From contig NZ_JH413813.1 in assembly GCF_000162755.2 (NCBI RefSeq), positions 13,130 through 50,466 on the forward strand: DNA of 37,337 nt, in the 5' to 3' direction. The translations under genes and the position numbers were made by a program. A model generated the notes under the pieces. That model did not search any database. It saw only the letters and a list, made by a program, of their open reading frames with translations, and was not told the DNA's origin. The DNA comes from Legionella drancourtii LLAP12. Its GTDB lineage: Bacteria > Pseudomonadota > Gammaproteobacteria > Legionellales > Legionellaceae. Shown in pieces: positions 3,435 to 32,615 of this stretch; position 1 is the stretch's first letter, and the number at the start of each line of letters is the position of its first letter.

Positions 3435-3444
3435 TTTTTTGTAG

Positions 3445-3625: not shown

Positions 3626-3654
3626 TAATTTATATTTATATGAGGGAGATTGAC

Positions 3655-5908: not shown

Positions 5909-6061
5909 GGGGATAGCCCTCATTAAATGAGAGCTGATGGTACATCAAGTGCTATAATCGAGCAATATGCATTGCTACATCAATGATGTTCATGTCGTCA
6001 ACCTATGTAAGAACTAATCTGTCCTGGAAACAGTGACAAAGCCGCAGCCTCCAGAACCGCT

Positions 6062-15097: not shown

Positions 15098-15983
15098 ATG
15101 AAAACAGAACACGCGCCAATACGTAAAGCAGTATTTCCAGTTGCCGGTCTGGGGACACGATTTTTACCTGCAACTAAAGCCGCTCCTAAAGAAATGCTAT
15201 CTGTTGTTAATAAACCTCTAATTCAGTATGCCGTTGAAGAAGCATATGCCGCAGGCATTCGCCAAATGATCTTTGTCACCTGTCATAATAAACGTGCTAT
15301 TGAAGATCACTTTGATCTTGCCTATCAACTTGAAAATGAACTCACCGCTCATCATAAAGACGAACTCTTATCCATAGTGCAATCAGTAAAACCAGAGGAT
15401 ATGGAATGTTTCTTTGTACGTCAACCTAAAACACTTGGTTTAGGCCATGCGGTATTATGTGCGGAAAAAATCATAGGTGAAGAAACGTTTGCAGTGATTC
15501 TTGCCGATGATTTAATGATTGGGGAGCCTCCTGTTTTACAACAGATGACGAAACTTTATGAACAATATGGACACTGCATTATTGCTGCCGAACATGTTCC
15601 CTCAGAAATGACAGAGCAATATGGCATTATTCAGAGTATTCCCTGGGAAAAAAATATGTCTAAAGTGCAAAATCTGGTAGAAAAACCCTTGCCTCATCTT
15701 GCCGCCTCAAATACAGCTATTGTCGGTCGTTATATTCTTACTGAAAAAATCTTTGCGCAAATCAAAGCATTACCAAAAATAGAACATAAAGAAATTCAAC
15801 TTACCGATGCAATCAATAGATTGCTCAAAGAAGAAACCATTTTAGCCTATCATTATCAAGGAAAACGCTATGATTGTGGCAGTGTATTTGGTTTTTTTAA
15901 AAGCAAATGTAGACCTTGGAAGAAGTCACCCAATTGAAGGTGAACGCTTTTCCAAATGGCTTTTAGAAGAGCATCATAATTAA
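15098..15983 (+). pseudogene. galU: UTP-glucose-1-phosphate uridylyltransferase GalU, frameshifted near the C-terminus
   Basis: GalU makes UDP-glucose from UTP and glucose-1-phosphate for envelope polysaccharides. The nucleotide-binding GLGTRFLPATKAAPKEML (from residue 18) is intact, as are ILADDLMIG, NLVEKPLP and YQGKRYDCGS. After GSVFGF the frame breaks in a run of seven T (15892-15898) and stops at 15937. Dropping one T restores FLKANVDLGRSHPIEGERFS and a stop at 15983, exactly as in intact GalU. The uninterrupted frame would end 15098-15937 with 279 residues and a wrong tail. AGGTGG lies 7 nt before the start. The break could be a consensus error, transcriptional slippage on the T-run, or a recent mutation. 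Confidence 0.9.
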
Positions 15984-15987
15984 TAAG

Positions 15988-16093
15988 AGCTGTTGACATT
16001 TCGTGAGCTTGAGCGAAAATGGGTTGATTTTCAAGCATCTGAGCGCATAAGACTAATGTCTTTGTGTCAAGAGAGTAGAAATGCCAATAGGCC
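15988..16093 (+). repeat. Intergenic repeat family B, copy 3
   Basis: Between galU and pgi, the left edge GAGCTGTTGACATTTCGTGA and the right edge TAGAAATGCCAATAGGCCC form imperfect terminal inverted repeats (CTGTTGACATTTC against CTATTGGCATTTC). GGGTTGATTTTCAAGCA lies inside, as in copies 1 and 2. A weaker relative sits near 11610-11665 (ATTGACATTTCGC ... GCGCTCATAAG), upstream of the large orphan gene. Confidence 0.6.
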
Positions 16094-16114
16094 CTAATTA
16101 ATAGAGAATTAGAT

Positions 16115-17558
16115 ATGGAATATCCAACAACAAAAAATGCATGGAAAAAACTAGAGCAACACGCAAATAAGTTCATTAAGACGTCCAATAGGTCATCACC
16201 GCACTATCATGCGGTAAGTGACAATATTACTCTTGATTACAGCGGACAACAGATTGATGATGCGATTCTTAATACGCTGCTTGAACTTGCTACCGAAAGC
16301 AATCTGCAAGAACAAATTAATGCCTTATTAGCAGGACATCCTGTTAATAGCACTGAAAATAGACCGGCTTTACATACTGCGTTACGCGCCCATGATTATG
16401 AAATAATACACGTCAACTCACGAAACGTGGTTGCCGATGTTGTTGAAGTCCGTCAGCAAATGAAGCGCCTGTCAACACAAATCAGAAATGGCGAATGGCT
16501 TGGCTATTCAGGAAAACCCATTACAGATATAGTGAATATTGGCATCGGTGGCTCAATGCTCGGCCCGTTTTTCTGTATTGATGCATTTAGCGATTATGTA
16601 ACTGATAAATTAAAATTTCATTTTATCGCGGAAATGGATCCCAAAGCCTTCTCACGAGTTAGCGCCAAACTTAATCCAGAAACGACATTGTTTATTATTT
16701 CTTCAAAATCATTTACAACCCCTGAAACCTTATACAATATGGAAAAAGCATTTGCTTGGATGAATCAAAAACAGCATTTTGACAAACACTTTATTGCAGT
16801 AACTGCTAATGTAAAAAAAGCCCAAGAATATGGATTTAATCATATACTGGCCATATGGGATTGGGTTGGTGGCCGTTATTCTGTATGTTCTTCGATTAAT
16901 TTGATCACTTGTATCGCTATAGGCTTTGAACAATTTTCAGAAATGCTGACTGGTGCAAAGATGATGGATGAGCATTTTCGCACAGCCGCGTTTCCCGAAA
17001 ATTTACCGATTCTTTTAGGATTGTTAGGTGTTTGGAATATTAATTTTTAAAAAATAATAACCATTTAGTGCTCACCTATTCCGAGGATTTAGAATACTTT
17101 GTTCCTTATCTGCAACAGCTTGATATGGAAAGCAATGGAAAATCAATTAATAAACAGGGACGACGTGTCGATTATGATACGGGACCTATTATTTGGGGTG
17201 GTCCTGGCAATCAAGCGCAACATAGTTACTATCAACTTTTATGCCAAGGTACTCTAAAAATAGCAACCGTTTAATCAGTGTGAAGGCATTCGATGGTCAA
17301 GCAATTAATAAAATCTGTCTTGGGCATCAAAGAGTGTTAACACAAGGTGTGACTAGTGAAGAAAATCCTCACAGTTATGTGGCAGGTGCAGTGCCTGTAA
17401 ATCACTTATCAATTGTCAATTGCACACCGAGAGCATTGGGTTCTTTAATCGCTTTATATGAACATAAAATTTTCGTGCAAGGGGTGGTTTGGAATATTAA
17501 TTCTTTTGATCAACCCGGTGTTGAAAGTTCTAAAAAGATATTTAGAGAATATGCCTAA
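16115..17558 (+). pseudogene. pgi: Glucose-6-phosphate isomerase Pgi, broken by two frameshifts
   Basis: Pgi interconverts glucose-6-phosphate and fructose-6-phosphate. The first frame (16115-17050) holds ITDIVNIGIGGSMLGP, SSKSFTTPETL and WDWVGGRYSVCSSINL. It stops in NINF at 17048-17050. One additional T in the T5 run at 17044-17048 would continue it as FLKNNNHLVLTYSEDLEYF, and the next frame (17068-17274) carries QLDMESNGKSINKQGRRVDY and GPIIWGGPGNQAQHSYY. A second missing T near 17270 breaks ATV/LISVKAFDGQ. The third frame (17241-17558) supplies the C-terminal ALYEHKIFVQGVVWNINSFD. All catalytic regions are conserved, so any decay is very recent; sequence error is equally possible. galU and pgi are adjacent on the same strand. 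Confidence 0.92.
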
Positions 17559-17584
17559 GTGATCTTAAGCTCAATCATCAAGGA

Positions 17585-17610
17585 AAAGGTTCTTGCAAAT
17601 AGGAACCTTT
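17585..17610 (+). terminator. Hairpin downstream of pgi
   Basis: AAAGGTTC and GAACCTTT form a perfect 8-bp stem with a 10-nt loop, 26 nt after the pgi stop codon. There is no long T-run after it, so efficiency is uncertain. Confidence 0.5.
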
Positions 17611-17632
17611 GCGCATCAAATAAGACCATCCC

Positions 17633-17662
17633 TTGACACAAACCCAACCCTCTTGCTATCTT
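17633..17662 (+). promoter_or_regulatory. proC: Putative sigma-70 promoter of proC
   Basis: A consensus TTGACA at 17633-17638 is followed after 18 nt by TATCTT at 17657-17662, ending 29 nt before the proC start codon. It fits proC having its own transcript, separate from yggS-yggT. Confidence 0.5.
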
Positions 17663-17691
17663 TTTTAATTAATAAAAAAATATGAATCAAT

Positions 17692-18519
17692 ATGATTAGT
17701 AAAAAATCAATAGCAATCATTGGTGCAGGACATCTAGGCAGCGCGTTAATTCGCGGCCTAATCAAAAGTGGCTATGCCGAAAAATCCATAATCGTCAGTA
17801 ATCGCAACCCTGCTAAATTAAATCGTCTGGTTAATGAACTCGATGTTGTACCCGCTGAAAGCAATAGCAAAGCAGTTGAGGATGCTGACATCCTTATTCT
17901 GGCGATAAAACCCCAATTCATGCACGATGTTTGTATGGAAATAGCAGCCAGCGTTCAAAAAAAACGCCCATTAATCGTTTCTTTAGTTGGTGTTACCGAA
18001 ATCAAGCAAATTGCTCTATGGCTTGGCGCTCACGATCTACCTATTATACGTGTCATGACTAATACACCAATGGAATTTGGCAAAGGCACCTCTGCCCTTT
18101 TTGCTAATAGCCTAGTCAATACAGAGCAGAAGTTATTGATTGAAAGCATTTTCAATGCAGTAGGCTCACTATTTTGGCTTGATGAGGAACAGCTCTTAGA
18201 TCCACTCACCGCGGCGATTGGCAGTGCCCCCGCTTATGTACTTTTATTCATGGAAGCACTACAAAAAGCAGCCATGAGTCAGCATATTCCTGAAAAACTT
18301 GCAGAAAAAATTGCTTTTGATGTTGTGGCTGGCACTGCCGTCCTGGCAGAACAATCCGGCCGTTCTTTTGCAGACTTACGTGCGGGTGTTACTACACCCA
18401 ATGGAATTACAGAGCATTCTTTAAAAGAATTGGTTATTAATGATTTTTTTGATGATTTCAAAAAAATTTACCAAGCAGCTAATGAACGCATAACACAAAT
18501 TAAAGAGCCGCAAATTTAA
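17692..18519 (+). CDS. proC: Pyrroline-5-carboxylate reductase ProC
   Basis: This is the last step of proline synthesis: NAD(P)H reduction of pyrroline-5-carboxylate. The Rossmann motif SIAIIGAGHLGSALIRGL is at the N-terminus (about 6-23). ILAIKPQ, IIRVMTNTPMEFGKGTSAL and DPLTAAIGSAPAYVLLFMEA are conserved family blocks, and the C-terminal dimerisation part ends with DLRAGVTTPNGITEHSLKEL. The 275 residues are normal. In many gammaproteobacteria proC lies between yggS and yggT; here it stands alone with its own promoter, about 15 kb from that pair. No strong ribosome-binding site is visible. Confidence 0.94.
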   Translation: MISKKSIAIIGAGHLGSALIRGLIKSGYAEKSIIVSNRNPAKLNRLVNELDVVPAESNSKAVEDADILILAIKPQFMHDVCMEIAASVQKKRPLIVSLVGVTEIKQIALWLGAHDLPIIRVMTNTPMEFGKGTSALFANSLVNTEQKLLIESIFNAVGSLFWLDEEQLLDPLTAAIGSAPAYVLLFMEALQKAAMSQHIPEKLAEKIAFDVVAGTAVLAEQSGRSFADLRAGVTTPNGITEHSLKELVINDFFDDFKKIYQAANERITQIKEPQI

Positions 18520-18574
18520 TCTTAAATTAGCGTGAGTTTTGGATAAAAAATAGAAGAATATCTTAGCTCACAAT

Positions 18575-18670
18575 GATCCGTTCGGGCTAAGGAGGCATTT
18601 ATTGCCGTCTCGAAGCCGTGCGAATCTTGACAACAAGGCTTCGAGACGGCGCCGGGCACCGCCCCTCAGA
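18575..18670. repeat. Palindromic intergenic element family A, copy 2
   Basis: This is a compact copy between proC and the converging Sel1 gene: GATCCGTTCGGGCTAAGGAG, then GCCGTCTCGAAGCC, a short loop, and GGCTTCGAGACGGC. The inner 14-bp stem is perfect, which would give a strong RNA hairpin. Its right-hand outer arm is diverged (CCGGGCACCGCCCC). It ends only a few bases from the Sel1 stop codon. Confidence 0.75.
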
Positions 18671-18672
18671 CC

Positions 18673-20182
18673 TCATGGAGTTAATGAGCCACCTTTATCA
18701 GAGTCAAGTGAATTAAGAGCAGTTAATGCATCCTCCGCGGCGCTTTTGGATTCAGAAACTTTAAGTTGAAAGAAATTAGTACGATAGCCAAAAGTAGTTA
18801 CAGTACTCACTACATTGCCTAACTTCTTCAAAAGATTAAGTAGATAATCGCCCCAGCCTAAATCTTTTTCTAATATAGGAAGTGCCTCATTTATTGCAGC
18901 ATCACATTTTTGTTTGAATGCAGTCTTGGCAACTTTTAAATCTACAGCTGGATTAGCTATATTGCTAATAAACTCATCGCGCGTGTTGTTTAAGGCCATT
19001 AGCAGCTCAGATGCTTTGGCATGAGCAGCAGGCCATTGATGTTGCTCAATCCCGCCTATTTTATTCTCCAGACCAAGCAAAAGATTATTAATTTTATATT
19101 TTAACCCAACTCCAGCTCCTATTCTGTTTAATTCTGCCTTAGCACCTGCATGCCCTTGGGCTGCTGCACGTTGAAATTGCTCTACTGCCGCTGCCTTATC
19201 TTGAGCCACCCCACGACCAGAAGCAAACCTTAATCCTAGGCCATATTGAGCCATCGCATGTTCCTCGAGCTGCTGCAAGGCGGTACTGCGCAACTGCCGC
19301 TTCATCATTTTGTTCAATCCCACGGCCATTGGCAAGCATAAACCCTAGGTTATATTGAGCAGGCGCATACTCCTGAGCTGCTGCAAGGCGGTACTGCTCA
19401 ACTGCCGCTTCATCATTTTGCTTAACCCCACGGCCATTGGCAAGCATAAACCCTAGGTTATATTGAGCAGGCGCATATTCCTGGGCTGCGGCAAGGCGGT
19501 ACTGCTCAACTGCCGCTTCATCATTTTGCTTAACCCCACGACCAGAAGCAAGCCTTAAACCTAGGTTATATTGAGCAGGCGCATACCCCTGGGCTGCGGC
19601 AAGGCGGTACTGCGCAACTGCCGCTTCATCATTTTGCTTAACCCCACGACCAGAAGCAAGCCTTAAACCTAGGTTATATTGAGCAGTCGCATCCCCCTGC
19701 GCTGCGGCAAGGCGGTACTGCGCAACTGCCGCTTCATCATTTTGTTCAATCCCTCGGCCATTGCCAAGCATAAACCCTAGGTTATGTTGAGCAGGCGTAT
19801 ACCCCTGGGCCGCGGCAAGGCGGTACTGCACAACAGCTGCTTCATCATCTTGCTCAATCCCACGGCCATTGGCAAGCATAAACCCTAGGTTATATTGAGC
19901 AGGCGCATGCCCCTGGGCTGCGGCAAGGCGGTACTGCGCAACTGCCGCTTTATCATCTTGCTCAATCCCACGGCCATTGCCAAGCATAAACCCAAGGCTA
20001 CATTGAGCAGGCGCATACCCCTGGGCTGCGGCAAGGCGGTACTGCGCAACTGCCGCTACTTCATCTTTAGCTATCCCATTACCAGTGGAGTATCGCGTCC
20101 CTAAAGCACATTGCGCCTTAGCATCTCCAGCATTGGCTTTTTGAATCAAATCTGTAATTTCAAGGGCATTTAAATCGGACAT
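18673..20182 (-). pseudogene. Sel1-repeat protein with helical C-terminal domain, one frameshift
   Basis: Read through one extra base (in the TT at 19261-19262), this is a 502-residue protein. An 18-residue leader precedes nine 36-residue Sel1-like repeats of the form GYAPAQYNLGFMLANGRG followed by KQNDEAAVEQYRLAAAQ. A partial tenth leads to a helical C-terminal domain ending in TTFGYRTNFFQLKVSESKSA, a tail style I associate with Legionella effector-type proteins. Without repair the repeat frame stops at 19196 and a separate frame carries the C-terminal 220 residues. Sel1 proteins (LpnE, EnhC and others) scaffold host interactions in Legionella; that role is inferred. No signal peptide is visible. 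It is the only gene between two family A repeats. Confidence 0.82.
19156..20128 (-). repeat. Tandem 108-bp repeats within the Sel1 gene
   Basis: Nine consecutive 108-bp units encode the Sel1 repeats. Adjacent units from about 19263 to 19910 are nearly identical at the DNA level, for example the recurring GGCAAGGCGGTACTG and CTAGGTTATATTGAGCAGG blocks. Outer units are more diverged. This pattern implies recent unit duplication or homogenisation, and the copy number probably varies among strains or is prone to assembly collapse. Confidence 0.9.
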
Positions 20183-20377
20183 AAGACACTCTTAACCTAA
20201 AGTATAAATTTAAGTAAAGTATACATGAATGACACATATTTAGTCAATATGGGTTTTTATTGACAATGAGGCGGTGCGCGCATCATTTAGAAAGACAAAG
20301 CCGATGAATTAGCTATAAAACTGAGTAAGATACATTTTAAGTGCCACAATCAGCCCCCTCATCGTCACACGCAAGAA

Positions 20378-20557
20378 GCATAGGCGTCAAGTAAAGAAAA
20401 AAAGCCCATAATCCGTTCGGGCGTAGAAGGCATTTATTGCCGTCTCGAAGCCCCGTGCCAAGATGAGCAAGGCTTCGAGACAGCGCTAAAGCGCTTCCTC
20501 AGCCCGAGCGGATCGAGGATAGGCAAGGTTAATCTCCTTAACATAACGCCTATGCCC
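20378..20557. repeat. Palindromic intergenic element family A, copy 3
   Basis: This is an inverted copy of copy 1. The minus strand reads GGGCATAGGCGTTATGTTAA, then CTCGATCCGCTCGGGCTGAG, GAAGCGCTTTAGCGCT, TCTCGAAGCC, and the complementary GGCTTCGAGACGGC and GCCCGAACGG. The left flank repeats GCATAGGCGTCAAGTAAAG, so the palindrome extends beyond the core hairpin. It fills most of the gap of about 430 nt between damX and the Sel1 gene; the rest of that gap (20183-20377) is AT-rich and probably holds the Sel1 promoter. Confidence 0.8.
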
Positions 20558-20610
20558 CAAAGGAAGAAGAGATTTTCTACGTAGCTTAAAATAAGCTACC
20601 CTTTTGCCTA

Positions 20611-21966
20611 TTAACCTAAAGAGGAAATAGGTCTAACCCAAGGATTTAATTTCATCAATGAGGGAGGTAAGCGCTCAATAGACTGTTGCGCATCCGTCAT
20701 GTTGTTGTATTCGCCCATAGTTAGCACATACCAAACTACTTTATTCTCAGTGTAATGATGTAACTTAGCGGAAGTATAAAGCAATTTATTATTTTTTATG
20801 TAACGCTGCATGTCCACCTTATCTGGGCTAGCCACTAATTGGATGGTATATAACTTTTCTGCTTTAGATGCAGTGCCTTTGCCACTTATTGATTGTGCTT
20901 TTGCCAGTAGATGGGAACTAATATTGGCTTTCGCATGTATTACTGCTTTATCGGCTATGGCGATAGCCTCGCGCGATAAACCTTTATTGATAATATCCAA
21001 ATTTTGCTTTTCAGCTAAGTTATGTTCCACTAATTGTCGTGTTACCGAATCCTGCCATGACGCAATTGTGCTCGACAGCGCTTCAGGTTGTACCTCAATA
21101 ATCTCAGCTTGAGGTGATGCTAAAGCGGTTGTCACATTGGTTGCCGGCTCTTGATAATAAGCATTGGATAAAAACAAACAGGCTGCACCAGCAAGCACTG
21201 CTCCCCCCACTGGAACAGCTGATTTTCTGAATAGTTCCCGTATATTGCCTTGAACTTTATTCGCGCAGTTAAATACAAATGACTCTAAGCTACTATTAAT
21301 TTTAGCTACATTGCCCTTAGTTAGTTGATAAAACTGCTTTAATTGAGCATCACTTAGTGGTTTGGTAATTAAATGAGTAGCCATAGCACGCTGCAATACA
21401 TAAGTTCGTGCTTCACTTTCAGTCAATGAACTTAATTCTATAGTATGTACCAAATCATTAAAAAATGAAGCGGATAAACTATTCAATGCAGCAACCAGAG
21501 AATAATCTGAAATCAAACACAGATGAAAAAAATTAAAATTTTCTTGGTTTTTTATCGCAAGCATCACTTCTTTAATAAAGACTTCCGGCAAATGCTGGGC
21601 ATCATCAATTATGAGCAAGACATGTGCCCTGCGTTCATTAATTTGCGCTACCAAAGAAGAAATATCGGTATGTTGATCGTATTTCAAATGAAATTGCGTT
21701 GCAATATCCTCAATAATCTCTTCCCGGTTGCACGGCGCTTTAACAGTGATGGCCAACAGTTTTATTTGCGGATCCAAATTGTTTTGCAACAAAGTAGCAA
21801 AGCAAGTTTTACCACCCTCCTTTTCAGATAAAACAGTGATAAGTACGTTATTAAAAAGAATCAAATGATTAATGAATTCAATCTTTGACACCCAAGATTC
21901 TGGTTTTAATAATACCCTTGGCTGTATTACAGCTGCCAAATCAGACTGAAACAATCCCTCATTCAT
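20611..21966 (-). CDS. damX: DamX-like division protein (AAA-type domain plus SPOR)
   Basis: This is an inner-membrane protein with a cytoplasmic ATPase-like domain and a periplasmic septal-peptidoglycan binding domain. A P-loop-like stretch is at about 44-58 (ITVLSEKEGGKTCFATLL), without the first Gly of a classic Walker A. A Walker B-like VLLIIDDAQHLP follows. One transmembrane segment is near 250-270 (VGGAVLAGAACLFLSNAYY). The C-terminal SPOR domain (about 367-446) begins LYTIQLVASPDK and ends LMKLNPWVRPI. The position right after aroB matches E. coli aroK-aroB-damX. The degenerate P-loop suggests weak or absent ATP hydrolysis. It starts 2 nt after the aroB stop codon. Confidence 0.88.
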   Translation of the reverse strand: MNEGLFQSDLAAVIQPRVLLKPESWVSKIEFINHLILFNNVLITVLSEKEGGKTCFATLLQNNLDPQIKLLAITVKAPCNREEIIEDIATQFHLKYDQHTDISSLVAQINERRAHVLLIIDDAQHLPEVFIKEVMLAIKNQENFNFFHLCLISDYSLVAALNSLSASFFNDLVHTIELSSLTESEARTYVLQRAMATHLITKPLSDAQLKQFYQLTKGNVAKINSSLESFVFNCANKVQGNIRELFRKSAVPVGGAVLAGAACLFLSNAYYQEPATNVTTALASPQAEIIEVQPEALSSTIASWQDSVTRQLVEHNLAEKQNLDIINKGLSREAIAIADKAVIHAKANISSHLLAKAQSISGKGTASKAEKLYTIQLVASPDKVDMQRYIKNNKLLYTSAKLHHYTENKVVWYVLTMGEYNNMTDAQQSIERLPPSLMKLNPWVRPISSLG

Positions 21967-21968
21967 TT

Positions 21969-23072
21969 TTATTCTCCTTCAACTGCAGCGATAAGCGTAT
22001 TATATAAAATATCTTCTGTTATTTGATCATCTAGGTAACACATACCAAGCTCTTTGATCAGTACAAAACGTAAACAATTATTTTTAATTTTTTTATCCAG
22101 GCTCATCAATTCTCTTAATTGCCTCAAATCAATTGCCCTTGGAATTTTATGTGGTAAACCGGCATTTTGCAGCATTTGTTCTACTTGCGCCACAACTTGT
22201 GCATCAATCAAGCCTATTTTTTTGGATAGTAGTGCGGCACAGTATAAGCCTATTGCCACTGCTTCACCGTGCAACCATTGCTGGTAATGCGTATACACCT
22301 CTAATGCATGGGCAAAGGTATGGCCAAGATTTAATAAAGCACGCTGTCCTTTTTCTTTTTCGTCTACCTCAACAAACTGCGCTTTAATACGACAACATTG
22401 AGCAATAAGTTGTGGTAGTTGCGGATGATGGGCGATTAAGCCTTGTTGTAACGCCTCATTGAGCTGGGTTAAAAATGTGCCGCCAGCAAGTAAACCGTAT
22501 TTGATTACTTCCGCTAAACCCGCACGAAACTCGCGTTCAGGCAAGGTATCTAGCGTCGCTAAATCAATAAGCACCGCTTGGGGTTGATAAAAACTGCCGA
22601 TCATGTTTTTACCTTGCGGATGATTAATTGCTGTTTTGCCGCCAACCGAGGAATCTACCTGAGCTAACAAAGTAGTTGGTATTTGAATAAAATCAACACC
22701 TCGTTGATAAGTTGACGCAGCAAAACCAGCCATGTCACCAATTACACCACCACCCAAGGCAATAACGGTAGTATCTCTATGATGTCTTTTTTGCATCAAC
22801 ATGTCGTAAATAGCAAACAAGCTATGTTGATTTTTATACTGCTCGCCGTCTTCTAAAATAACTACATCACATTGAATATCAGTAAAAGCTGCCTGGATAT
22901 ATCTTAGATAGAGCGGCGCTATAGTCTGATTCGTAACAATAAGAACCTGCGGGGACTTCACGATGGTTCGTAACAACTCGGGGTAGTTCAAACCATCACG
23001 ACAAATACGAATAGAATAATGATGCCCAGTTAAAGAAACATCAACCTGTTCATAGGTCTTAAAGTTCGCCAT
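21969..23072 (-). CDS. aroB: 3-dehydroquinate synthase AroB
   Basis: This is the second step of the shikimate pathway, an NAD- and metal-dependent cyclisation of DAHP. Family motifs are [21 protein letters not shown] (about 105-125), [19 protein letters not shown] (about 135-153), and the metal ligands around [21 protein letters not shown] and LHGEAVAIG. The 367 residues are normal. The gene overlaps the end of aroK by 14 nt and runs directly into damX, so the three are probably one transcript. Confidence 0.97.
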
Positions 23073-23586
23073 AAATATATTTTATTATATTATTTGCAAC
23101 CGCTTTGACTGTTAATTTATCTGTTTCAAAACTTACGTCAGCTAGCTCATCGTAAAATGGCTCGCGCTCATCTCGTAGCGATTCTAATCGTCCCTCAAGA
23201 TCATTGGTTTGCAGCAATGGGCGTTTGGTATCGCGCTTGGTTCTTTCGAATTGTTGTTGCAATGAGGTTTTAAGATAAATGACCGTCCCTCTCCCTGCAA
23301 GTGCATTTCTGTTCTCAGGAGTGATAACCACGCCGCCGCCTGTAGCTAAGACAATATTGGTTTTTTGAGTCAATTCATCAATAACTTTTTGCTCACGACG
23401 TCGAAATCCTTCTTCTCCTTCTATATCAAAAATCCATGATATATCCGCACCAGCGCGCTCTTCAATGACTTCATCAGAATCAAAGAATTCCAATTTGAGC
23501 TCCTTTGCCAAAGCACGACCAATTGTGCTTTTTCCAGCACCCATAGGTCCAATCAGAAAAATATTTCGTACTTTAACTATGCTCAT
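23059..23586 (-). CDS. aroK: Shikimate kinase AroK
   Basis: This enzyme phosphorylates shikimate with ATP. Walker [10 protein letters not shown] is at 13-21. The shikimate-binding [23 protein letters not shown] and ATGGGVV follow, and the lid region has RDTKRPLLQ. The 175 residues match the family. aroB overlaps its 3' end. A gap of about 200 nt with several TATAAT-like hexamers separates it from pilQ, so aroK may have its own promoter as well as readthrough from the pilus operon. Confidence 0.97.
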
Positions 23587-23787
23587 TTTTAATTACATAC
23601 CTCTTTAGCTGTGGTGTCATAAATTAAACAAGTTATTATAACAGCAAATTATACTTAGCGCAGTTATTAACTGTGCTAATTGTAATGGTTCCATACTAAT
23701 AGGTTTGTTAATCATTCATTATAATAATTCACAACCCTAAAAATCCCGCCGATATTCTACACAAATACCTACTAAAAACCCATAAAA

Positions 23788-25927
23788 TTATTTTTGGTCA
23801 AAAATCAACGGTTTTCCAAACTTATCCAACATCCTTGCTTTATTATGTTCTTGCCCTTCAATTGTGGTAATTGATAAGGAATTTGTGATTATTTTAGGTG
23901 TAATAAAAATAAGCAACTCGTCATTTGTTAATGACGATTTGCGTATTTCTAAACAAATTTCCAACCACAGGTAACTGCCCCAGAAAAGGTATTCTGGTAA
24001 TTGTTCTACTCTTATCTTGTTGATAGATCCCACCAAGAACAATTGTCTGCCCATTACTTACAAGAACATTCGTCTGAATTTCCTTGGTAAGTATAGCAGG
24101 AACTCCATTAAATAATTGTGTTGAAGCAGTATCTTGATTAATTTTTAAATCCATCAAGATCTTACTGTCTGGAGTGATTTGTGGAGTCACCCTTAAACTC
24201 AATACCGCCTTTTTAAATGCTACAGCAGTTGCGCCACTTGATGTAGACTCCTGGTAAGGAATTTCCTGACCTGAATCAATTACCGCAGGTTGCTGATTTG
24301 TCGTAATCAGCCTAGGGCTGGATATTAACTCAGCTCGCCCCTCACTTTCTAGTGCAGATAATTCCAAATCAAGTAATATATTATCACCCAATTTGGCTAA
24401 AGCAATACCTACAGAGGCAGGAGTCATCCCTGTTGCCGGTGCGGCAACTAAATCTAAGTTCAATCTTTGAGTATAAGGATTCACATTTGCCGGAGCCGTA
24501 CCTTGCTCCATTTGATTTGCGCCTTGCAATGTACCACTTAAGTGATTTGGCTTGGAAACCCCCCAACGAATACCCAAATCGCGCGCGAAATCTTTGGACA
24601 CTTCAACAATCCGTGCCTCAATCAATACTTGCTTAACGGGTACATCCAATTGTTTAATTAATGCCCTTACCTCCTCAATTTTCGTACCACTGTCTTGAAT
24701 CCAAATGGTATTGGTTCGGGTATCAACACTTATTTTACCCTTTTCCGATAATAAGGAATTTTGTCGGTCTTTAACCAAAATCGCAATATCTGAAGCCTTG
24801 GCGTAATTAATTTGCAATAATTCAGAGCGAATAGGCTCAAGTCGTTGAATAATTTGTTGACTCTTAAGTTGTTGTTCCTCCATTTTATCTAAGGATGCTT
24901 TCGTATCAATGAGCATTACATTAGCCGTTTGTCGCTTATCTAATCCCTGTGTAGTTAAGATAATATCTAAAGCCTGATCCCAGGGAATATCATTTAACCT
25001 AAGCGTAATATTTCCCTGAACCTTATCGCTCACCACAATGTTGATGTGCGTGAAATCAGCAAGTAACTGCAATACGGCTCTGATACTAATATTTTGGAAG
25101 TTTAAAGAAATATGCTTCCCGGTAAAAACTTTCTTTTTTAATTTGGCTTGTTGTACCTCGTCAGGCGTTAATGGAAACACATCAACCATAAATTGTTTAT
25201 TCACCTGATAAACAAAATGCCCAAAATCACCTTTATTCAACAAGGTCATCCATACATTTTTCCCTTTTTGCCGCAGCATTACCATTTGTACTGGACTATG
25301 AAAATCCACGACATCAAAACGTTTTATTAGCTCTGGCGTGACTTTGGTGTTTAAAAATTTAACAACAACTTCTTTTCCATTTTGAACAACATCAATCGGT
25401 ACGCTCGTATTAGACACATCAACAATCGCTCGACCACCCTGCTTATCAATACCACGAAAGTCAAAACGATTGATTTCATAAGCAGCATGAATAGGACGAT
25501 GAGTCACAAAAATTTCTTTGGTGGGTTCAAATAATTCACTATTTTTGCCATTCAATATAAGGGTATAGACAGAGCCAGTCATTGTTCCTGAATAAGTTAC
25601 TGAGCGCTCCAAATCCAATATGGCCCGAACACGAGTTCCCATAACCACAATTTTATAAGTTTTTAACGCGCTTAATTTTATTTGCTTCGCGTTTTGTCCT
25701 GGAGGTAATTTCAAACTTGAATCAATAAAATCAAGCACAATACGTGCAGGTTTTTGTGTAATAAAACTAGCGGGTTGTTGTTTTATGGGCTCAACAAATT
25801 GAAAATCCATCCGCACTTTGTCTTCAGGCAAAGGGATAATTTTTACAGAGATAAGCGCGTTACTTTGTGCAAACACCATACCACACCAAACACTCATTAA
25901 AACTAAAAAAACAACAATTTTTCGCAC
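23788..25927 (-). pseudogene. pilQ: Type IV pilus secretin PilQ, frameshifted near the C-terminus
   Basis: This is the outer-membrane secretin that the pilus passes through. The signal peptide ends in CGMVFA. Two AMIN domains are at about 25-270, and an STN/N0-like domain follows (HISLNFQNISIRAVLQLLAD). N1 repeats follow, then the secretin core with VPVKQVLIEARIVEV and the RITRIPFLGQLPVVGNLFRNT-like end. The frame stops at 23921 after TQIVINK. Removing one A from the AAA (plus strand TTT at 23924-23926) continues it as NDELLIFITPKIITNS to a stop at 23788, giving about 712 residues as expected. The break sits inside a perfect CGTCATT/AATGACG palindrome (23919-23936). Only the last 45 residues are affected, but these include the conserved ELLIFITP strand. 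Confidence 0.92.
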
Positions 25928-25941
25928 TGCAACTCCCTATC

Positions 25942-26454
25942 CTACTTCCCGGTATATAAATCAAGAGTGGTTATGTGTTTCTCCCACGCCCCTGAAGAAC
26001 CTTTGATTGTTTCTTCCAATTTAATTGAATTATTCTTAATCGAACGAATCTGACCATAATTTTGCCCCATGTAATCACCAATGGATACACGAGTAATTTG
26101 TGAGTCAGGCTGCTTGATTAAGCCCCATATCTGATTATCCTGAGTTAATGTCCCCACAAATTTTAGGGCATCAAGCGGATAAACTTCCAAAGCCTGCTTC
26201 ATTCGGTGTTGGTCTGGCGCAAAAAGATCGATCCGTTTTTGCTGATTTGTAGCCTTAAATGGATTGCGCGTGTTCTCATCATTGGGGAATTTAAATCCAG
26301 GCAAAGGAGTAAACGAAGGAATAGGCTCTATAGTCCGTGTTTTTCGTTGTTTGACTTGCTGGATGTATTGCCGCAAATCATTATTGTCATCGGAGCATGC
26401 TGTCAGCAATAAAGAAAATAAACTGATTAATATTCGCCGCGTCTGATTCATCAT
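25942..26454 (-). CDS. pilP: Type IV pilus lipoprotein PilP
   Basis: This is an inner-membrane lipoprotein that links PilN/PilO to the PilQ secretin. The lipobox LLTAC places the lipidated Cys near residue 20. A disordered linker with PIPSFTPLPGFKFP follows. The folded C-terminal domain has VYPLDALKFVGTL, IWGLIKQPDSQITRVSIGDY and MGQNYGQI, which is the PilP signature. The 170 residues are normal. The start codon follows the pilO stop directly (TAAATG), and pilQ begins 14 nt after its end. Confidence 0.94.
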   Translation of the reverse strand: MMNQTRRILISLFSLLLTACSDDNNDLRQYIQQVKQRKTRTIEPIPSFTPLPGFKFPNDENTRNPFKATNQQKRIDLFAPDQHRMKQALEVYPLDALKFVGTLTQDNQIWGLIKQPDSQITRVSIGDYMGQNYGQIRSIKNNSIKLEETIKGSSGAWEKHITTLDLYTGK

Positions 26455-27051
26455 TTAGGTACGATATCGATATATTTTAGCAGTGATGTTCATCACCAAT
26501 TCATCCGCCGAAATCACTTTATGATCCTTCGAGGGTACCCCTTCTATACTAAATTCATGCAAGGTCACAATTCGATTCATTTCAGCCACCCTGCTTAAAA
26601 ACATAGCCAATTGAAAATAGCGCCCTACCACCGATATTTTTATAGGTAGCTCCACATAAAAATCGTGACTTACCTCCGGTTGTGGAGCAAACAATTCGAA
26701 TTTAAGGCCTGATGCAACCCCTGTTTTAGAAATTTCTTCTAATAACCCCGGCATCTCGTTTTTTGCTGGCAATTGTTTGAGCATTAAGGTGAAACGATTA
26801 TTCATAATACTCAGTTGTTGACGATATTCACCTAAATTAAATACCTGACGTTGTTTGTTTTCAAAATCGGCTTTTAAGGTTACTTCTTGTGCTTGTAAGC
26901 GATCGTATTTAGCAAAGTTGTCTTGAATAATTAACCAATAGCCCAAGGCAACAATAAGCATGCTTACCCCAAAGAGCACGCCAATTTTGACAGACATTGG
27001 CCATTGCCCAACATTTTCCAGTGTTAATTCATTTAAGTTAAATTTATTCAT
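26455..27051 (-). CDS. pilO: Type IV pilus inner-membrane protein PilO
   Basis: This 198-residue bitopic inner-membrane protein pairs with PilN. It has a short cytoplasmic N-terminus, a transmembrane helix near 22-44 (VKIGVLFGVSMLIVALGYWL), and a coiled coil with RLQAQEVTLKADFENKQRQ. The periplasmic ferredoxin-like domain includes EMPGLLEEISKTGVASGLKF and VVGRYFQLAMFLSRVAEM. All are family features. It overlaps the end of pilN by 4 nt (ATGA). The frame is intact, unlike its neighbours. Confidence 0.94.
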   Translation of the reverse strand: MNKFNLNELTLENVGQWPMSVKIGVLFGVSMLIVALGYWLIIQDNFAKYDRLQAQEVTLKADFENKQRQVFNLGEYRQQLSIMNNRFTLMLKQLPAKNEMPGLLEEISKTGVASGLKFELFAPQPEVSHDFYVELPIKISVVGRYFQLAMFLSRVAEMNRIVTLHEFSIEGVPSKDHKVISADELVMNITAKIYRYRT

Positions 27052-27613
27052 GAAATCCCCCCGATAGGCGATTTAGGTTCAAGAACAAACGTTAATTTAA
27101 ATTCATTATCCGCGGGCTGTGTTTTATCATCCATTTTCTTAATTTCGCTAAGAACAGGATTATGAAGCCACTCATCGTTCTCTATATTTTTCATTTCCTG
27201 AGATACATAAGTGTTCGACTCGGCATAACCTGACAAAGAAATAATATTATTTTTCCTTCAATTTTACTTAAATAGACACCTGAGGGTGTGACTTTAATTA
27301 ATTCATCAAGTAAATGGACCATTAGTGTTCGTGTGGATTGTAAGTTGCGCACTACAGACATACGGGAAACCAACATACTTCGCACTTTTTCCAAATTTTT
27401 AATTTCCCTTATCTGACGGTCATAAACAGCAATTTCTTGTTGCAGCATTTGATTTCTGCTTATTTGGTTATTTACCAGATTAGACGCATAGTAATTAAGC
27501 AAAAATACAATGAATGAAGCAATGGCAACACCGACAAGCAAAAACAAAGTAAACAGTTTTTTTTCTTTTTCGCGTTTTTGTTCACGCCAAGGAAGTAGGT
27601 TGATTCGTGTCAT
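27048..27613 (-). pseudogene. pilN: Type IV pilus inner-membrane protein PilN, frameshifted
   Basis: PilN starts MTRINLLPWREQKREKEKKL, the conserved cytoplasmic tail that binds PilM; INLLPWRE is the key motif. A transmembrane helix follows at about 20-43, then a coiled coil and LLDELIKVTPSGVYLSKIEG. The frame then breaks at GK. One more A in the A5 run (plus strand T5 at 27250-27254) gives GKNNIISLSGYAESNTY, and it continues through FMK-like SQEMKNIENDEWLHNPVL to the end. The repaired length is about 188 residues. I chose the ATG at 27613; a TTG-led frame four codons earlier would overlap the pilM stop. A translation from the break onward lacks the start. Confidence 0.92.
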
Positions 27614-27617
27614 CGCG

Positions 27618-28711
27618 TTACTCAATATTCCTTAATGCTAATCCACAGGCAACCATAAGCGATGGCGCATCATTATTTATGGAGTCTAAATGAGCCTTTT
27701 TTCCTAATGACATATTAGAAAAGGGATTTGCCACAGTGGCAGTTACCCCTAGTTTTTCTTGAATTGAATTCACTAACCCTGGAAGCCTGCTAAACCGCCT
27801 GCGAGCAAAATATGATCAACATTTTCTTCCTGACTTGCAGAATAAAAAAAGTGCATCGTCCGTTTTATCTGCACTAAAATATTTTCTTTAAACGGTACTA
27901 AAACTTGCGCCTCATAATCAGCAGGTAACGTTCCTTGTTCTTTTGCTAAAGCAGCCTGTTCAACAGTCAACATATAGTATGCGGCAATCGCCTCTATTAA
28001 TTGCATGCCACCAAATTTCTCATCACGTGAATAAATTAATTTCATCCCATGCAAAACAAATAAATGGGTGTAATTCGCACCAATATCAATAATTGCAATT
28101 GTTTTATCTTGTCCTGCAGCAGGTAAATCTTTAGCAAGTTGCTGTGCTGCGCGCTCTACCGCAAAAGACTCTACATCAACCACCAAAACATCCAAACCAG
28201 CCCGAGTCACAGTTTCAACACGATTATTTACATTCTCAGCACGTGAAGCAACGATGAGAACATCAAGCATCGAACGGTTTTTTTCTGAAGGACCTAAAAT
28301 TTCAAAATCAAGATTAATTTCATCAATCGGATAAGGAATGTATTTATCCGCCTCAATAACAATGAGCTCCTCCATATCCTCATCGTTCAAGCCATCATTA
28401 ATTTGCACTATTTTGCTGATTATTGCCGCATCAGGCACAGCCAATGCAACCTGTTTACACTTGGTTTGTAATCTATCGAATAATTGTTTAATACACGACG
28501 CAACGGCGCCAACATCCTTAATAACATTGCCATCAAGTGCGTGAGGGGGTAAAACTTCGCGTCCATAATTTTCGACACAAAGCGTTTCGCCATTGCCAGA
28601 AATTTCTAACATTTTCACGGCTGCGGACGTTATATCTATGCCAAGAATTGAACGATGCTTAGGCTGAAACAATTTGAGCAAACGACTTATTCTTTTGAAT
28701 CTTCCTTGCAT
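27618..28711 (-). pseudogene. pilM: Type IV pilus actin-like protein PilM, frameshifted near the C-terminus
   Basis: This is the cytoplasmic actin-fold ring protein that binds the PilN tail. SILGIDITSAAVKMLEIS is the phosphate-1 region. IAIIDIGANYTHLFVLHG is the phosphate-2 region, and ILLAGGLAG the adenosine loop. The frame stops at 27773 after AGFQG. One missing base near 27783-27786 (GGCTTCC for GGCCTTCC) would give LAGLPGLVNSIQEKLGV and run on to a stop at 27618, about 364 residues. The final LMVACGLALRNIE is the expected C-terminus. AGGAG lies 9 nt before the start. It is the first gene of pilMNOPQ and diverges from the coiled-coil gene. Confidence 0.92.
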
Positions 28712-28926
28712 CCAAAAAAACTCCTATAGAACGGATATGATGATGTTAACGTAAGCCATTAAAAAATAGAATGGTTTTCTTTATATTTACTGGATTTAAG
28801 CCACAATCAAGAACAACTTCTCACGCTCTTTCATAAAACGTCTTGCGCCGCTACAAAACATTTAATATAGTGAAAAGTCAATCTGTAAGGGAATTTCTCA
28901 TTTATTGTTTTAGAAAGGAGGTTAAA

Positions 28927-30084
28927 ATGACACGATTGGACGATTTAATTATTTCACTGACAACAATTTTGGTCTGTTATCACGACAGTCAAACTCAAGT
29001 AGTTAAACCACGTATTACTGAAGACGACAAATTTTGGAGCAAATCTCGGCAATATGCGATAGACCTCTTAAATGAGGCCGATTATGTCATGGAAATTGAC
29101 AAGCTAAATAAAGCATGTACTTCTCATTATACGGGACGTCTTCATTTTCTTGATTTTATAAAAGATACAATAATTGATTTAAAAACAAAACAAAATAAAG
29201 ACACCCCTTTTGATGACAATGAATTGGAGGTATACACCAAAGACATAGCTCGATTATTTATCGACTTTAGAGAACTATTAAAGATACCTAAAAGTAAACA
29301 TTACGATGTGCAATTTAAAGAAGTTCATGGTAAGACTGCAAATATTTCTTTACCGGGTCTGATTGACGATAGCTATACGCGTTCGTTCACAAACTTCATA
29401 AGTAGCAATAAAGAAGAACCCTTATGTAATTCCGGAAAACTTACAACTAAAATATTGCTTGATAGATTTAATATTAAGGCAACTTCCTCGAATGAAGAAA
29501 TGCACCAAATAGCTAAAATTTTATGTCAGGAACACCAAGATTCCCTATTAGCAAAGGAAAACCAAAAAATAAAAGCCGAATTAGAGCAATCTCAGCATAA
29601 AGTTGCCGAACAACAAAGTACGAACGAAAAATTAACTCGTAAAATTGCGGAGCAACAAAGTGCAAACGAAGAGTTAAATCGTAAACTTGCAGAGCAACAA
29701 AGTACAAACATAGAATTAAATCGTAGAATTGTGGAGCAACAAAGCCTAATCAAATCATTAGAGCTTAGAGTTGCTGAGCAACAAAGTACGAATGAAGCAT
29801 TAGCTCACCGGATAGCTGAGAAATTAGAGGAAGAGCCATCAAAGGCTCAGTCGAGCGCAACAGCCCCTCAAGTAAAACCAAATAAAGAAAAAGCACTACC
29901 CACACCCATGGTATTCAAAGGGCTTTTTCCTGGATTAAGAGGAACGTTACCTAATGTTCCGAGCACTTTTTCCCCCTATCAGAGCTACTCTGTTGGGTTA
30001 TTTATGCATCCTAAAAATCCTCATACGACAAGCAGCACTCCATATAGAACCCCATCCCAGGGAGGTTCTAGTAATGGTGAATAA
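28927..30084 (+). CDS. Coiled-coil protein, candidate effector, between pilM and mrcA
   Basis: This 385-residue protein has no signal peptide or membrane segment. The start at 28927 has AAAGGAGG 6 nt upstream; the frame is open 84 nt further. The N-terminal helical domain (about 1-225), starting TRLDDLIISLTTILVCYH, includes DFIKDTIIDLKTKQNKD and DIARLFIDFRELLKIP; I do not recognise it. A coiled coil follows (about 215-305), made of five 14-residue units such as VAEQQSTNEKLTRK. The Pro/Ser/Gly-rich tail ends TPYRTPSQGGSSNGE. Its place between pilM and mrcA, genes that are usually directly divergent, suggests a later insertion. An effector role is inference from architecture and genus only. Confidence 0.75.
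   Translation: MTRLDDLIISLTTILVCYHDSQTQVVKPRITEDDKFWSKSRQYAIDLLNEADYVMEIDKLNKACTSHYTGRLHFLDFIKDTIIDLKTKQNKDTPFDDNELEVYTKDIARLFIDFRELLKIPKSKHYDVQFKEVHGKTANISLPGLIDDSYTRSFTNFISSNKEEPLCNSGKLTTKILLDRFNIKATSSNEEMHQIAKILCQEHQDSLLAKENQKIKAELEQSQHKVAEQQSTNEKLTRKIAEQQSANEELNRKLAEQQSTNIELNRRIVEQQSLIKSLELRVAEQQSTNEALAHRIAEKLEEEPSKAQSSATAPQVKPNKEKALPTPMVFKGLFPGLRGTLPNVPSTFSPYQSYSVGLFMHPKNPHTTSSTPYRTPSQGGSSNGE
29602..29811 (+). repeat. Five 42-bp tandem repeats in the coiled-coil gene
   Basis: Units begin at 29602, 29644, 29686, 29728 and 29770, exactly 42 nt apart, and the first bases of a sixth start at 29812. GAGCAACAAAGTACGAA-like cores are nearly identical. Each unit codes for two heptads, so unit gain or loss changes coiled-coil length without a frameshift. 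Confidence 0.9.
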
Positions 30085-30094
30085 GTAAAATCTC

Positions 30095-30142
30095 TTGGCG
30101 TTTCATTAATTATTTTGCCTTCCCTCTTCAATGAAACGCCAA
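30095..30142 (+). terminator. Long stem-loop after the coiled-coil gene
   Basis: TTGGCGTTTCATT and AATGAAACGCCAA form a perfect 13-bp stem with a 22-nt loop starting 10 nt after the stop codon. There is no T-run behind it, but it is the only strong hairpin in the gap and probably defines the transcript end before mrcA. Confidence 0.6.
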
Positions 30143-30202
30143 TTAAATTGCAAAATCCCCCTCTTTTTTGTACAAAACTCGCAATCTCATAAGGAATCAC
30201 GG

Positions 30203-30208
30203 TATAAT
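30203..30208 (+). promoter_or_regulatory. mrcA: Putative -10 box for mrcA
   Basis: A perfect TATAAT lies 35 nt upstream of the mrcA start codon. The expected -35 position (about 30180) has only a weak match, so promoter strength may depend on other factors. Confidence 0.4.
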
Positions 30209-30242
30209 GTGATACTAATTTCATTTAAACCAACATGACTCT

Positions 30243-32615
30243 ATGAAAAAAATGGCATACTTCTGGCGTAAAGGTCTATGGGCGCTGATGAGCCTGTTTT
30301 TTCTTTTATTAGTAGTAGGTAGTGTTTTATACCTCTACCTTGAAAGCCAGCTCCCCAATGTCGATTCATTGAAAACAGTGCAATTACAAGTCCCATTACA
30401 AATCTTCAGCAAAGAAGGCTTGCTTATTCAAGAATATGGTGAAAAAAAACGTATTCCAGTTACCTACGATGAAATACCACAAGCACTGATTCATGCTCTG
30501 GTTGCCACAGAAGATCAACGCTTTTTTGAACATCCTGGCGTTGATATAATGGGTCTTGGTCGCGCGGCTGTACGCATGGTCAAAACAGGAACCAAATCTC
30601 AAGGTGGTAGTACGATTACCATGCAGGTTGCGCGCAACTTCTTTTTAACCCGCAAAAAAACCTTCTTACGTAAGTTCAATGAAATCATGTTGGCGATTAA
30701 GATAGACCGAGAGCTAAGTAAAGAAAAAATCCTGGAACTGTATCTTAATCGCATTTATTTAGGTAATCGTGCCTATGGCGTTGGGGCTGCGGCCATGGTC
30801 TATTATGGCAAACAACTTAAAGAGCTTAACCTTTCTGAGTTAGCGATGCTTGCCGGTCTTCCTCAAGCACCATCAACGCAAAACCCTATTGCGAATCCTT
30901 TGGCAGCTAAAAAACGTCGTGACCACGTTTTAGAACGCCTTTTGGAAGAACACTATATTAATGAAGAGCAGTATCAAAATGCTATTAATCAACCAATTAC
31001 AGCAAAATATCATGGCACTGACATCAAAGTAAGTGCACCATACGTGGCCGAAATGATTCGCCAATCTTTATATGATAATTTCGGCCCAGATGCCTACACT
31101 AAAGGATATAAGGTTTACACCACGATTGATGGCAACCTGCAAAATACAGCAAATCAAGTCGTAGAAAAGAATTTAATTGCTTACGATCACCGTCATGGCT
31201 ATCGCGGTCCGATCGCAACCATTGGTGAGCAAGACAGTAAATCCTTGACGATTATTCATAAAAGCCTGGAAAAATACCCTACGCTCAACAATCTGATTCC
31301 TGCGGTAATTACTGAAGTTCATGATAAAGAAGTCACGGCAATATTACAAAATGGACATTCAGCAACAATCCCATGGAGTGGTTTATCCTGGGCTAGACCT
31401 GCTCTTAAAAATGGCTGGGTAGGAAAATCACCCGCTAAAGCCATGCAAATTGTTGCCATAGGTGACATTGTTTATGTTCATTCAACAAAAGAGCATTGGG
31501 AATTAGCGCAGATTCCAGATGCAGAATCGGCAATGGTTGCGCTTAACCCCAAAAATGGCGCCATTGAAGTTTTAGTTGGTGGTTTTAATTTCCAAAAAAG
31601 TAAGTTCAACCGTGCAACTCAATCAAGCAGACAACCGGGTTCAAGCTTTAAGCCATTTGTCTATGCTGCTGCATTAAATAATGGATACAGCCTGGCGACA
31701 CTAATCAACGATGCCCCAATTGTTGTTGATGATCCAAGCCAGCCTAATTTGTGGCGACCACACAATGTTAACTTAAAATTCAATGGCCCAACGCGCTTAA
31801 AACAAGCTTTGGTACAGTCTAAAAACCTAGTGTCGATTCGAATTCTAGATGATATTGGCATCAATTACACCATCGACTTCCTGACTCGTTTTGGCTTTAA
31901 TAAAAAACTACTCCCTAAAGGCTTATCGCTGGCTTTAGGCAGCCTCTCTATTAGTCCAATGGATTTAACCGCTGCATACGCTGTATTTGCGAATGGCGGC
32001 TATAAAGTAGAACCATTCCTTATTGATCGGATTACGGATAAAGACGGTAAAATTCTCTTACAAGCCAAGCCTTCTGTTGTTTGCAATAATTGCGATACCA
32101 ATGTCGATCACTCTACTCTGGCACCGCGTGTCATTCCAGAAGACATTACTTATTTAATGAATTCCGCATTAAAAGACGTGATTCAACATGGTACGGCAAG
32201 AGCAGCGCGAGTACTTAATCGTCAAGACATAGCTGGTAAAACAGGAACAACCAATGATCAAGTCGATTCCTGGTTTGCCGGATTTAACTCTGATTTAGTA
32301 GTGACCACGTGGATAGGTTTTGATAATCCTAAATCACTTCATGAATATGCCGCAGGCCTTGCTCTCCCTTTATGGATAGACTTTATGAAAGTCGCGCTAA
32401 AAGGAAAGCCTGAAAGTGAAATGAAACAACCTGAAAATGTAGTGACTGTACGCATTGATCCTAGTAGTGGCTTATTGGCCAGACCAAATCAAGCTAATGG
32501 CATTATAGAATACTTCCGCGATAAGGAAGTTCCTGCAGAAGAAGATCCTACTCCAGTATATAATGCAAGTACCGATCAAGGACAACTTCCAACCGTAGAA
32601 GAAAATTTATTTTAA
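30243..32615 (+). CDS. mrcA: Penicillin-binding protein 1A
   Basis: This bifunctional class A PBP polymerises and crosslinks peptidoglycan. One N-terminal transmembrane helix (about 11-33) anchors it in the inner membrane. In the glycosyltransferase domain, ATEDQRFFEHPGVD carries the catalytic Glu (E90), and QGGSTITMQVARN and KILELYLNRIYLGN follow. An OB-like insert lies at about 310-420. The transpeptidase domain has SxxK as SSFK (S467), SKN in VQSKNLVS, and KTGT at 666-669. The 790 residues are typical. It lies divergent to the pilMNOPQ operon, as in many gammaproteobacteria, but with an extra gene between them. Confidence 0.96.
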   Translation: MKKMAYFWRKGLWALMSLFFLLLVVGSVLYLYLESQLPNVDSLKTVQLQVPLQIFSKEGLLIQEYGEKKRIPVTYDEIPQALIHALVATEDQRFFEHPGVDIMGLGRAAVRMVKTGTKSQGGSTITMQVARNFFLTRKKTFLRKFNEIMLAIKIDRELSKEKILELYLNRIYLGNRAYGVGAAAMVYYGKQLKELNLSELAMLAGLPQAPSTQNPIANPLAAKKRRDHVLERLLEEHYINEEQYQNAINQPITAKYHGTDIKVSAPYVAEMIRQSLYDNFGPDAYTKGYKVYTTIDGNLQNTANQVVEKNLIAYDHRHGYRGPIATIGEQDSKSLTIIHKSLEKYPTLNNLIPAVITEVHDKEVTAILQNGHSATIPWSGLSWARPALKNGWVGKSPAKAMQIVAIGDIVYVHSTKEHWELAQIPDAESAMVALNPKNGAIEVLVGGFNFQKSKFNRATQSSRQPGSSFKPFVYAAALNNGYSLATLINDAPIVVDDPSQPNLWRPHNVNLKFNGPTRLKQALVQSKNLVSIRILDDIGINYTIDFLTRFGFNKKLLPKGLSLALGSLSISPMDLTAAYAVFANGGYKVEPFLIDRITDKDGKILLQAKPSVVCNNCDTNVDHSTLAPRVIPEDITYLMNSALKDVIQHGTARAARVLNRQDIAGKTGTTNDQVDSWFAGFNSDLVVTTWIGFDNPKSLHEYAAGLALPLWIDFMKVALKGKPESEMKQPENVVTVRIDPSSGLLARPNQANGIIEYFRDKEVPAEEDPTPVYNASTDQGQLPTVEENLF

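What the first reader, a model, noticed from the sequence alone, without database searches (positions are those of the whole stretch)
15892..27786. Seven single-base frameshifts clustered in one 12-kb stretch
galU, pgi (twice), the Sel1 gene, pilQ, pilN and pilM each lose frame through one base, and the conserved protein continues immediately in another frame. Genes on either side of this stretch (0-15.8 kb and 28-37 kb) are intact. The changes include both gains and losses, mostly in short runs. Because protein conservation after each break is intact, the options are consensus error in a poorly polished stretch or very recent loss of several functions at once.
Basis: partly seen in the sequence, partly recalled or inferred. 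Interest (0 to 1): 0.75.

Follow-up and report, generated by a model that had tools for sequence, protein, structure and literature searches.

The report
Probable sequencing-error patch in Legionella contig
Several neighbouring genes in this stretch of a Legionella-like sequence lose their reading frame by single-base shifts, which most likely are errors in the assembled sequence rather than real gene loss, so the finding is ordinary.

Summary
The window is Legionella (PBP1A 92% identical to L. steigerwaltii; nearest DNA match 82% among 45 genus genomes). With relatives' intact proteins as probes, six of the seven frame breaks were found independently: galU, pgi twice, pilQ, pilN, pilM. The seventh, in a Sel1-repeat gene, rests on repeat continuity alone. 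No break was found in the flanks, but relatives cover only part of them. Clustering is moderate (p 0.005 to 0.025). Full-length open copies exist: galU and pgi in 7 of 7 genomes, pilQ in 22 of 28, pilN in 28 of 29, pilM in 29 of 29. Both senses of shift occur (2 versus 4). Three of six sites lie within 6 bases of a run of five or more (13% expected). Window-only amino-acid changes are no commoner in broken genes than in flanks (14.4 versus 12.2 per 1000), but that test is weak. Best reading: consensus indel errors, probably in a poorly supported patch of the assembly. Real multi-gene loss cannot be excluded without reads.

The parts
15098..15937 (+). galU (UTP-glucose-1-phosphate uridylyltransferase), open part; frame lost near its 3' end
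   Evidence: TIGR01099 348 bits; relatives' proteins continue in another frame
16115..17050 (+). pgi (glucose-6-phosphate isomerase), first open part
   Evidence: NF001211 model positions 7-327 of 544, below the family's curated cut-off as the piece is incomplete; frame break supported by 8 loci
17241..17558 (+). pgi, last open part; a middle part in a third frame lies between, so two breaks in one gene
   Evidence: NF001211 positions 444-511; second break supported by 8 loci
18673..20182 (-). Sel1-repeat gene in two overlapping ORFs (19196-20182 and 18673-19335); possible secreted effector, so described only
   Evidence: Sel1 repeats in both ORFs (the second ORF's Sel1 match is below Pfam's cut-off); a weak below-cut-off match of the second ORF to the Dot/Icm effector AnkF model; pieces searched apart; no matching ORF at this place in the relatives used
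23788..25927 (-). pilQ (type IV pilus secretin), main ORF 23921-25927 plus a C-terminal remainder in another frame
   Evidence: TIGR02515 472 bits; break supported by 26 loci
27191..27625 (-). pilN region, open part; the relatives' protein continues in another frame
   Evidence: named from its place in the pilMNOPQ order (recalled), no Pfam match of its own; break supported by 32 loci
27773..28711 (-). pilM, open part; frame lost near its 3' end
   Evidence: TIGR01175 285 bits, positions 3-297 of 348; break supported by 34 loci
17692..18519 (+). proC, intact inside the stretch
   Evidence: TIGR00112 positions 1-262 of 263
20611..23586 (-). damX-like, aroB and aroK, intact inside the stretch
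25942..27051 (-). pilP and pilO, intact inside the stretch
   Evidence: PF04351 and PF04350 over nearly the full profile

Best explanation
The frame breaks are insertion/deletion errors in the consensus sequence of this record, most likely in a patch that was thinly covered, or covered only by an indel-prone kind of read, when the contig was assembled. The cell that was sequenced probably has open genes here. Shown: six breaks that each look like one shift, both senses, moderate clustering, and open copies in most relatives. Inferred: the error origin and the thin-coverage patch. The sequencing platform is unknown.
For: Each of the six breaks needs exactly one shift against nearly every relative ORF tested. 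The broken genes belong to unrelated functions, with intact genes between them. Full-length open copies were found for galU (at least 295 aa) and pgi (at least 479 aa) in 7 of 7 genomes, pilQ (at least 669 aa) in 22 of 28, pilN (at least 182 aa) in 28 of 29 and pilM (at least 325 aa) in 29 of 29. Over 30 control genomes the detector found 10 breaks in 408,625 covered bp, one of them in a gene broken here (pilQ of L016, a MAG), against 6 in 24,952 bp of the window. Window-only amino-acid changes are not raised: 14 of 975 columns in broken genes, 20 of 1549 in intact genes of the stretch, 47 of 3837 in flanks. Three of six sites lie within 6 bases of a run of five or more, against 13% of coding positions (p = 0.012 on mean run length). 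[quoted passage not shown]
Against: No reads, quality values, coverage or second assembly of this strain were available, and no genome of the window is held. Three of six sites lie near no run longer than 3, unlike pure homopolymer error. The substitution test has little power: with 4 substitutions per indel, ordinary decay would give a count this low with probability 0.45, with 10 per indel 0.11. Clustering could be chance in a uniformly error-prone record (p 0.005-0.025). Runs of seven or more are slightly denser in the stretch (1.01 per kb) than in the flanks (0.69 and 0.73), which would also help real slippage. Four of 28 genomes carry a shorter pilQ of 465-469 aa, one has 552 aa and L016 is split, so pilQ is the least uniform of these genes.
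Confidence: 0.86

Rival explanations
1. The frameshifts are real and very recent: this lineage has lost galU, pgi, the type IV pilus/competence machine and a Sel1 protein, for example during adaptation to a host or by drift.
For: Three of the seven breaks fall in one operon (pilM, pilN, pilQ), as expected if its loss were tolerated. Finding no excess of substitutions only says that any loss is recent.
Against: The losses span unrelated functions, sit in one 12-kb span with intact genes between, and include two breaks in pgi, with none found in the tested flanks. In mismatch-repair-deficient E. coli lines coding substitutions outnumber small indels about 7 to 1 (27,164 to 3,841; passages of PMC8510543), so indels alone would be unusual, but the test here is weak.
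Confidence: 0.08
2. A mutator (mismatch-repair-deficient) or phase-variable strain with slippage in mononucleotide runs.
For: Three of six sites are near runs of 5-7, and run length is above chance (p = 0.012). Runs of seven or more are slightly denser in the stretch (1.01 per kb against 0.69 and 0.73).
Against: Runs of six or more are as dense in the flanks (2.83 and 2.30 per kb) as in the stretch (2.52), yet no break was found there. Half of the sites have no run longer than 3 nearby.
Confidence: 0.03
3. A variant of the best explanation: the record is error-prone throughout and the clustering is chance, so no local bad patch exists. (This overlaps with the best explanation; its odds are part of that 0.86.)
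For: Clustering p values are only 0.005 to 0.025. Parts of the flanks are not covered by relatives.
Against: About 21.7 kb of flanking ORF sequence has no break found, against 7 in 11.3 kb.
Confidence: 0.15

Closest known systems
[quoted passage not shown] passages seen)
   Same: Single-base shifts that split otherwise conserved genes into pieces in neighbouring frames; detected by comparison with relatives
   Different: Here they cluster in about 12 kb of a 37-kb window, and the platform is unknown
Homopolymer frameshifts in 454 metagenome assemblies (PMC3277595; passages seen)
   Same: Artificial frameshifts in assembled DNA of low G+C, mostly in A/T runs
   Different: Only three of six sites here are near a run of five or more, and it is not known that this record is a metagenome contig
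Pseudogenes of recent origin
   Same: Broken frames with conserved protein on both sides
   Different: No sign of relaxed constraint (weak test), several unrelated functions, and none found in the tested flanks

Membership tests
Consensus indel error | Open reading frames in relatives at the same genes | tested here: met
   Full-length open copies in 7 of 7 (galU, pgi), 22 of 28 (pilQ), 28 of 29 (pilN) and 29 of 29 (pilM) genomes; one comparable break in 30 control genomes, pilQ of L016. Sel1 not testable
Consensus indel error | Indels without matching excess of amino-acid substitutions | tested here: inconclusive
   14.4 versus 12.2 window-only changes per 1000 columns, Fisher p = 0.63, but low power
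Consensus indel error | Association with mononucleotide runs | tested here: inconclusive
   Longest runs 3, 3, 3, 5, 6, 7 within 6 bases; p = 0.012 on the mean
Consensus indel error | Reads disagree with the record, or depth is low | not testable with these tools
   No reads held; no whole genome held for the window
Recent pseudogenes (gene decay) | Relaxed constraint in the broken genes | tested here: inconclusive
   No excess seen, low power
Recent pseudogenes (gene decay) | The same break confirmed in independent sequence of the same strain | not testable with these tools
   Nearest held genome has 82% DNA identity over the PBP1A region
Programmed frameshifting | Frame switch conserved in relatives | tested here: not met
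   Relatives' single open ORFs run across the sites; no such switch in controls except pilQ of L016

The most novel reading that the evidence does not exclude
The breaks are real: a Legionella lineage has just lost its type IV pilus/competence machine, galU and pgi together, by small indels focused on one chromosomal segment, which would imply a locally raised indel rate or a sudden change of lifestyle.
Probability: 0.07. Interest if true: 0.45.

Novelty: not a real feature. Interest (0 to 1): 0.08.

Why it matters
Taken at face value, the record would suggest that this Legionella cannot make type IV pili or run parts of its sugar metabolism. Flagging the stretch keeps such false losses out of comparative work. 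If reads confirmed the breaks, it would be a rare snapshot of several functions being lost at once in one segment.

Tried and rejected
Identification of the source strain: DNA searches with window 28843-32615 of 45 genus genomes and 143 family genomes (135 with a match) found nothing closer than 82%. The window's own genome is not held. One search was not repeated; the right flank was judged from loci fetched by coordinates and from profiles.

A first control with all ORFs, antisense ones included, gave 18 events supported by at least 3 loci in 608,520 covered bp over 26 genome groups. I replaced it by the stricter control limited to orthologues of window genes (10 in 408,625 bp over 30 genomes). 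Of these ten, six are in pbp1A, three in the fast-evolving gene before it and one in pilQ of L016; I did not inspect the nine outside pilQ. galU and pgi could be checked in few of these genomes, since only 7 gave loci that reach them. The event at 25.9 kb came from the antisense strand and was dropped.

The census counted genomes whose single open ORF also matches the window at a fixed point past the break: galU 3 of 7, pgi 7 of 7 at both sites, pilQ 9 of 28, pilN 27 of 28, pilM 28 of 28. It is low for galU and pilQ because their tails are short, and three of the seven genomes have a distant galU (47-48% identical). therefore counted full-length open copies instead; it also showed a shorter pilQ (465-469 aa) in 4 of 28 genomes, a 552-aa one in L021, a split one in L016, and a 105-aa pilN in G006.

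The substitution test for decay was kept but is weak. pilQ and the gene at 28843 are missing from it because only 3 of the 7 comparison genomes passed the coverage filter, and a short gene at 3153 because only 1 did. A further clustering figure (probability 0.0006 that all seven fall in the stretch) was left out of the argument because the stretch was drawn after seeing the events.

Literature searches were (listings only). Passages were seen of PMC12007338, PMC8510543 and PMC3277595. The listings showed nothing about this contig.

Full report
What the window is. The penicillin-binding protein 1A at 30243-32615 is 92% identical to that of Legionella steigerwaltii and about as close to those of many other Legionella. 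The nearest DNA match to window 28843-32615 is 82% among 45 genus genomes and no closer among 143 family genomes. The species itself is therefore not held, and no whole genome is held for the window. One relative, a MAG (locus L045, handle G002), carries most conserved genes of the window from about 77 to 32615 in the same order on one contig.

The observation. I probed the window with 846 ORFs from relatives and looked for probes whose match changes frame while staying continuous. Six places emerged: galU, pgi twice, pilQ, pilN and pilM. The same six, and no others, came out when only orthologues of window genes were used and at least three loci were required. A frameshift-tolerant alignment found exactly one shift at each place in 8 of 8, 8 of 8, 8 of 8, 32 of 32, 32 of 32 and 31 of 34 relative ORFs that passed its filters; 3 of 34 for pilM showed none. 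By commonest placement two of the six shifts are of one sense and four of the other. The seventh claim, in the Sel1 gene, cannot be tested with orthologues because no ORF of the relatives used matches 18508-20613. Sel1 repeats do run on in a second, overlapping ORF, so I accept it with less confidence.

Intact genes. Inside the stretch proC, a damX-like gene, aroB, aroK, pilP and pilO are open. No break was found in the flanks. Relatives cover 12330 of 15891 bp on the left and 4262 of 9551 bp on the right. The three right-flank genes beyond 32.6 kb match profiles in one frame over nearly the whole profile. The end at 36.7-37.3 kb has no ORF above 79 aa and was not searched further.

Is it more than chance? 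Full-length open copies exist in 7 of 7 genomes for galU and pgi, 22 of 28 for pilQ, 28 of 29 for pilN and 29 of 29 for pilM. The pilQ exceptions are four genomes with a shorter version of 465-469 aa, one with 552 aa, and L016, whose pilQ is split. Over 30 control genomes the strict detector found 10 breaks in 408,625 covered bp, against 6 in 24,952 bp of the window. Nine of the ten fall in pbp1A or the fast-evolving gene before it and were not inspected; one is the well-supported pilQ break in L016, a MAG. Seven events within an 11.9-kb span have p = 0.005 under a uniform model, 0.0065 over the listed ORFs, and 0.025 if only the six well-tested ones are used. The cluster is therefore likely but its edges are soft.

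Error or decay? Window-only amino-acid changes number 14 of 975 columns in broken genes, 20 of 1549 in intact genes of the stretch and 47 of 3837 in flanks (pilQ could not be included). There is no sign of relaxed constraint or of substitution-type error. The test is weak: decay with 4 substitutions per indel would give a count this low with probability 0.45, and with 10 per indel 0.11. For comparison, mismatch-repair-deficient E. coli lines gave 27,164 substitutions and 3,841 small indels in coding sequence (passages of PMC8510543). Longest runs within 6 bases of the six sites are 3, 3, 3, 5, 6 and 7; 13% of coding positions have a run of 5 or more that near. Runs of six or more are as dense in the flanks as in the stretch, although runs of seven or more are slightly denser in the stretch. 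A slippage-prone strain should have broken flanking genes too.

Verdict. Indel-only breaks of both senses, in unrelated genes that most relatives keep open, gathered in one part of a contig, are what consensus errors look like. They are described for long-read assemblies (passages of PMC12007338) and for 454 metagenome assemblies (passages of PMC3277595). I put consensus error at 0.86, of which a chance cluster in a generally error-prone record is about 0.15. Which platform, and whether the patch had low depth, is inference. Real recent loss of several functions stays possible at under 0.1 and can be decided with the source reads.

Limits kept. Because the organism belongs to a control-list genus, broken genes were examined only as separate pieces and against relatives' intact proteins.

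Noticed in passing
window 23059-23586 (-): AroK (shikimate kinase) is almost frozen at the protein level: 95.4-100% identical in 33 of 33 relative ORFs and 100% in 9 of them (five genomes, four of them counted twice), while third codon positions agree at only 53-74%. Its median identity over 7 genomes is 100%, against 54-91% for the 16 other genes compared. I have no explanation; one search on aroK, shikimate kinase and Legionella (listing only) showed no paper on it by title or abstract start.
   Followed up: partly
window 18508-20613: The Sel1 gene has no matching ORF at this place in the relatives used and lies in DNA of higher G+C (0.44-0.46 for 18001-21000 against about 0.39), so it looks like an accessory insertion. 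Its second ORF matches ORFs of many sizes in 21 of 45 Legionella genomes.
   Followed up: partly
window 3432-6064: A low-G+C island not covered by the relatives' syntenic proteins, with a ParE-like toxin gene (3842-4144) and an RF-1-domain gene (4518-4934) beside a 330-aa ORF without Pfam match. G002 has DNA matches to the first two on other contigs (81% and 69%), which suggests mobility.
   Followed up: no
L016: This uncultured Legionella MAG has its own frame break in pilQ, supported by 25 loci.
   Followed up: no
L111-L112, L114, L115, L118: Four Legionella genomes (G021, G001, G003, G006) carry a shorter pilQ ORF of 465-469 aa where most others have about 700 aa.
   Followed up: no
window 28843-30084 (+): A 413-aa ORF before PBP1A, without Pfam or NCBIfam match, only about 31-35% identical to the 12 best-matching relative ORFs listed although its neighbour PBP1A is about 91% identical at the median.
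   Followed up: no
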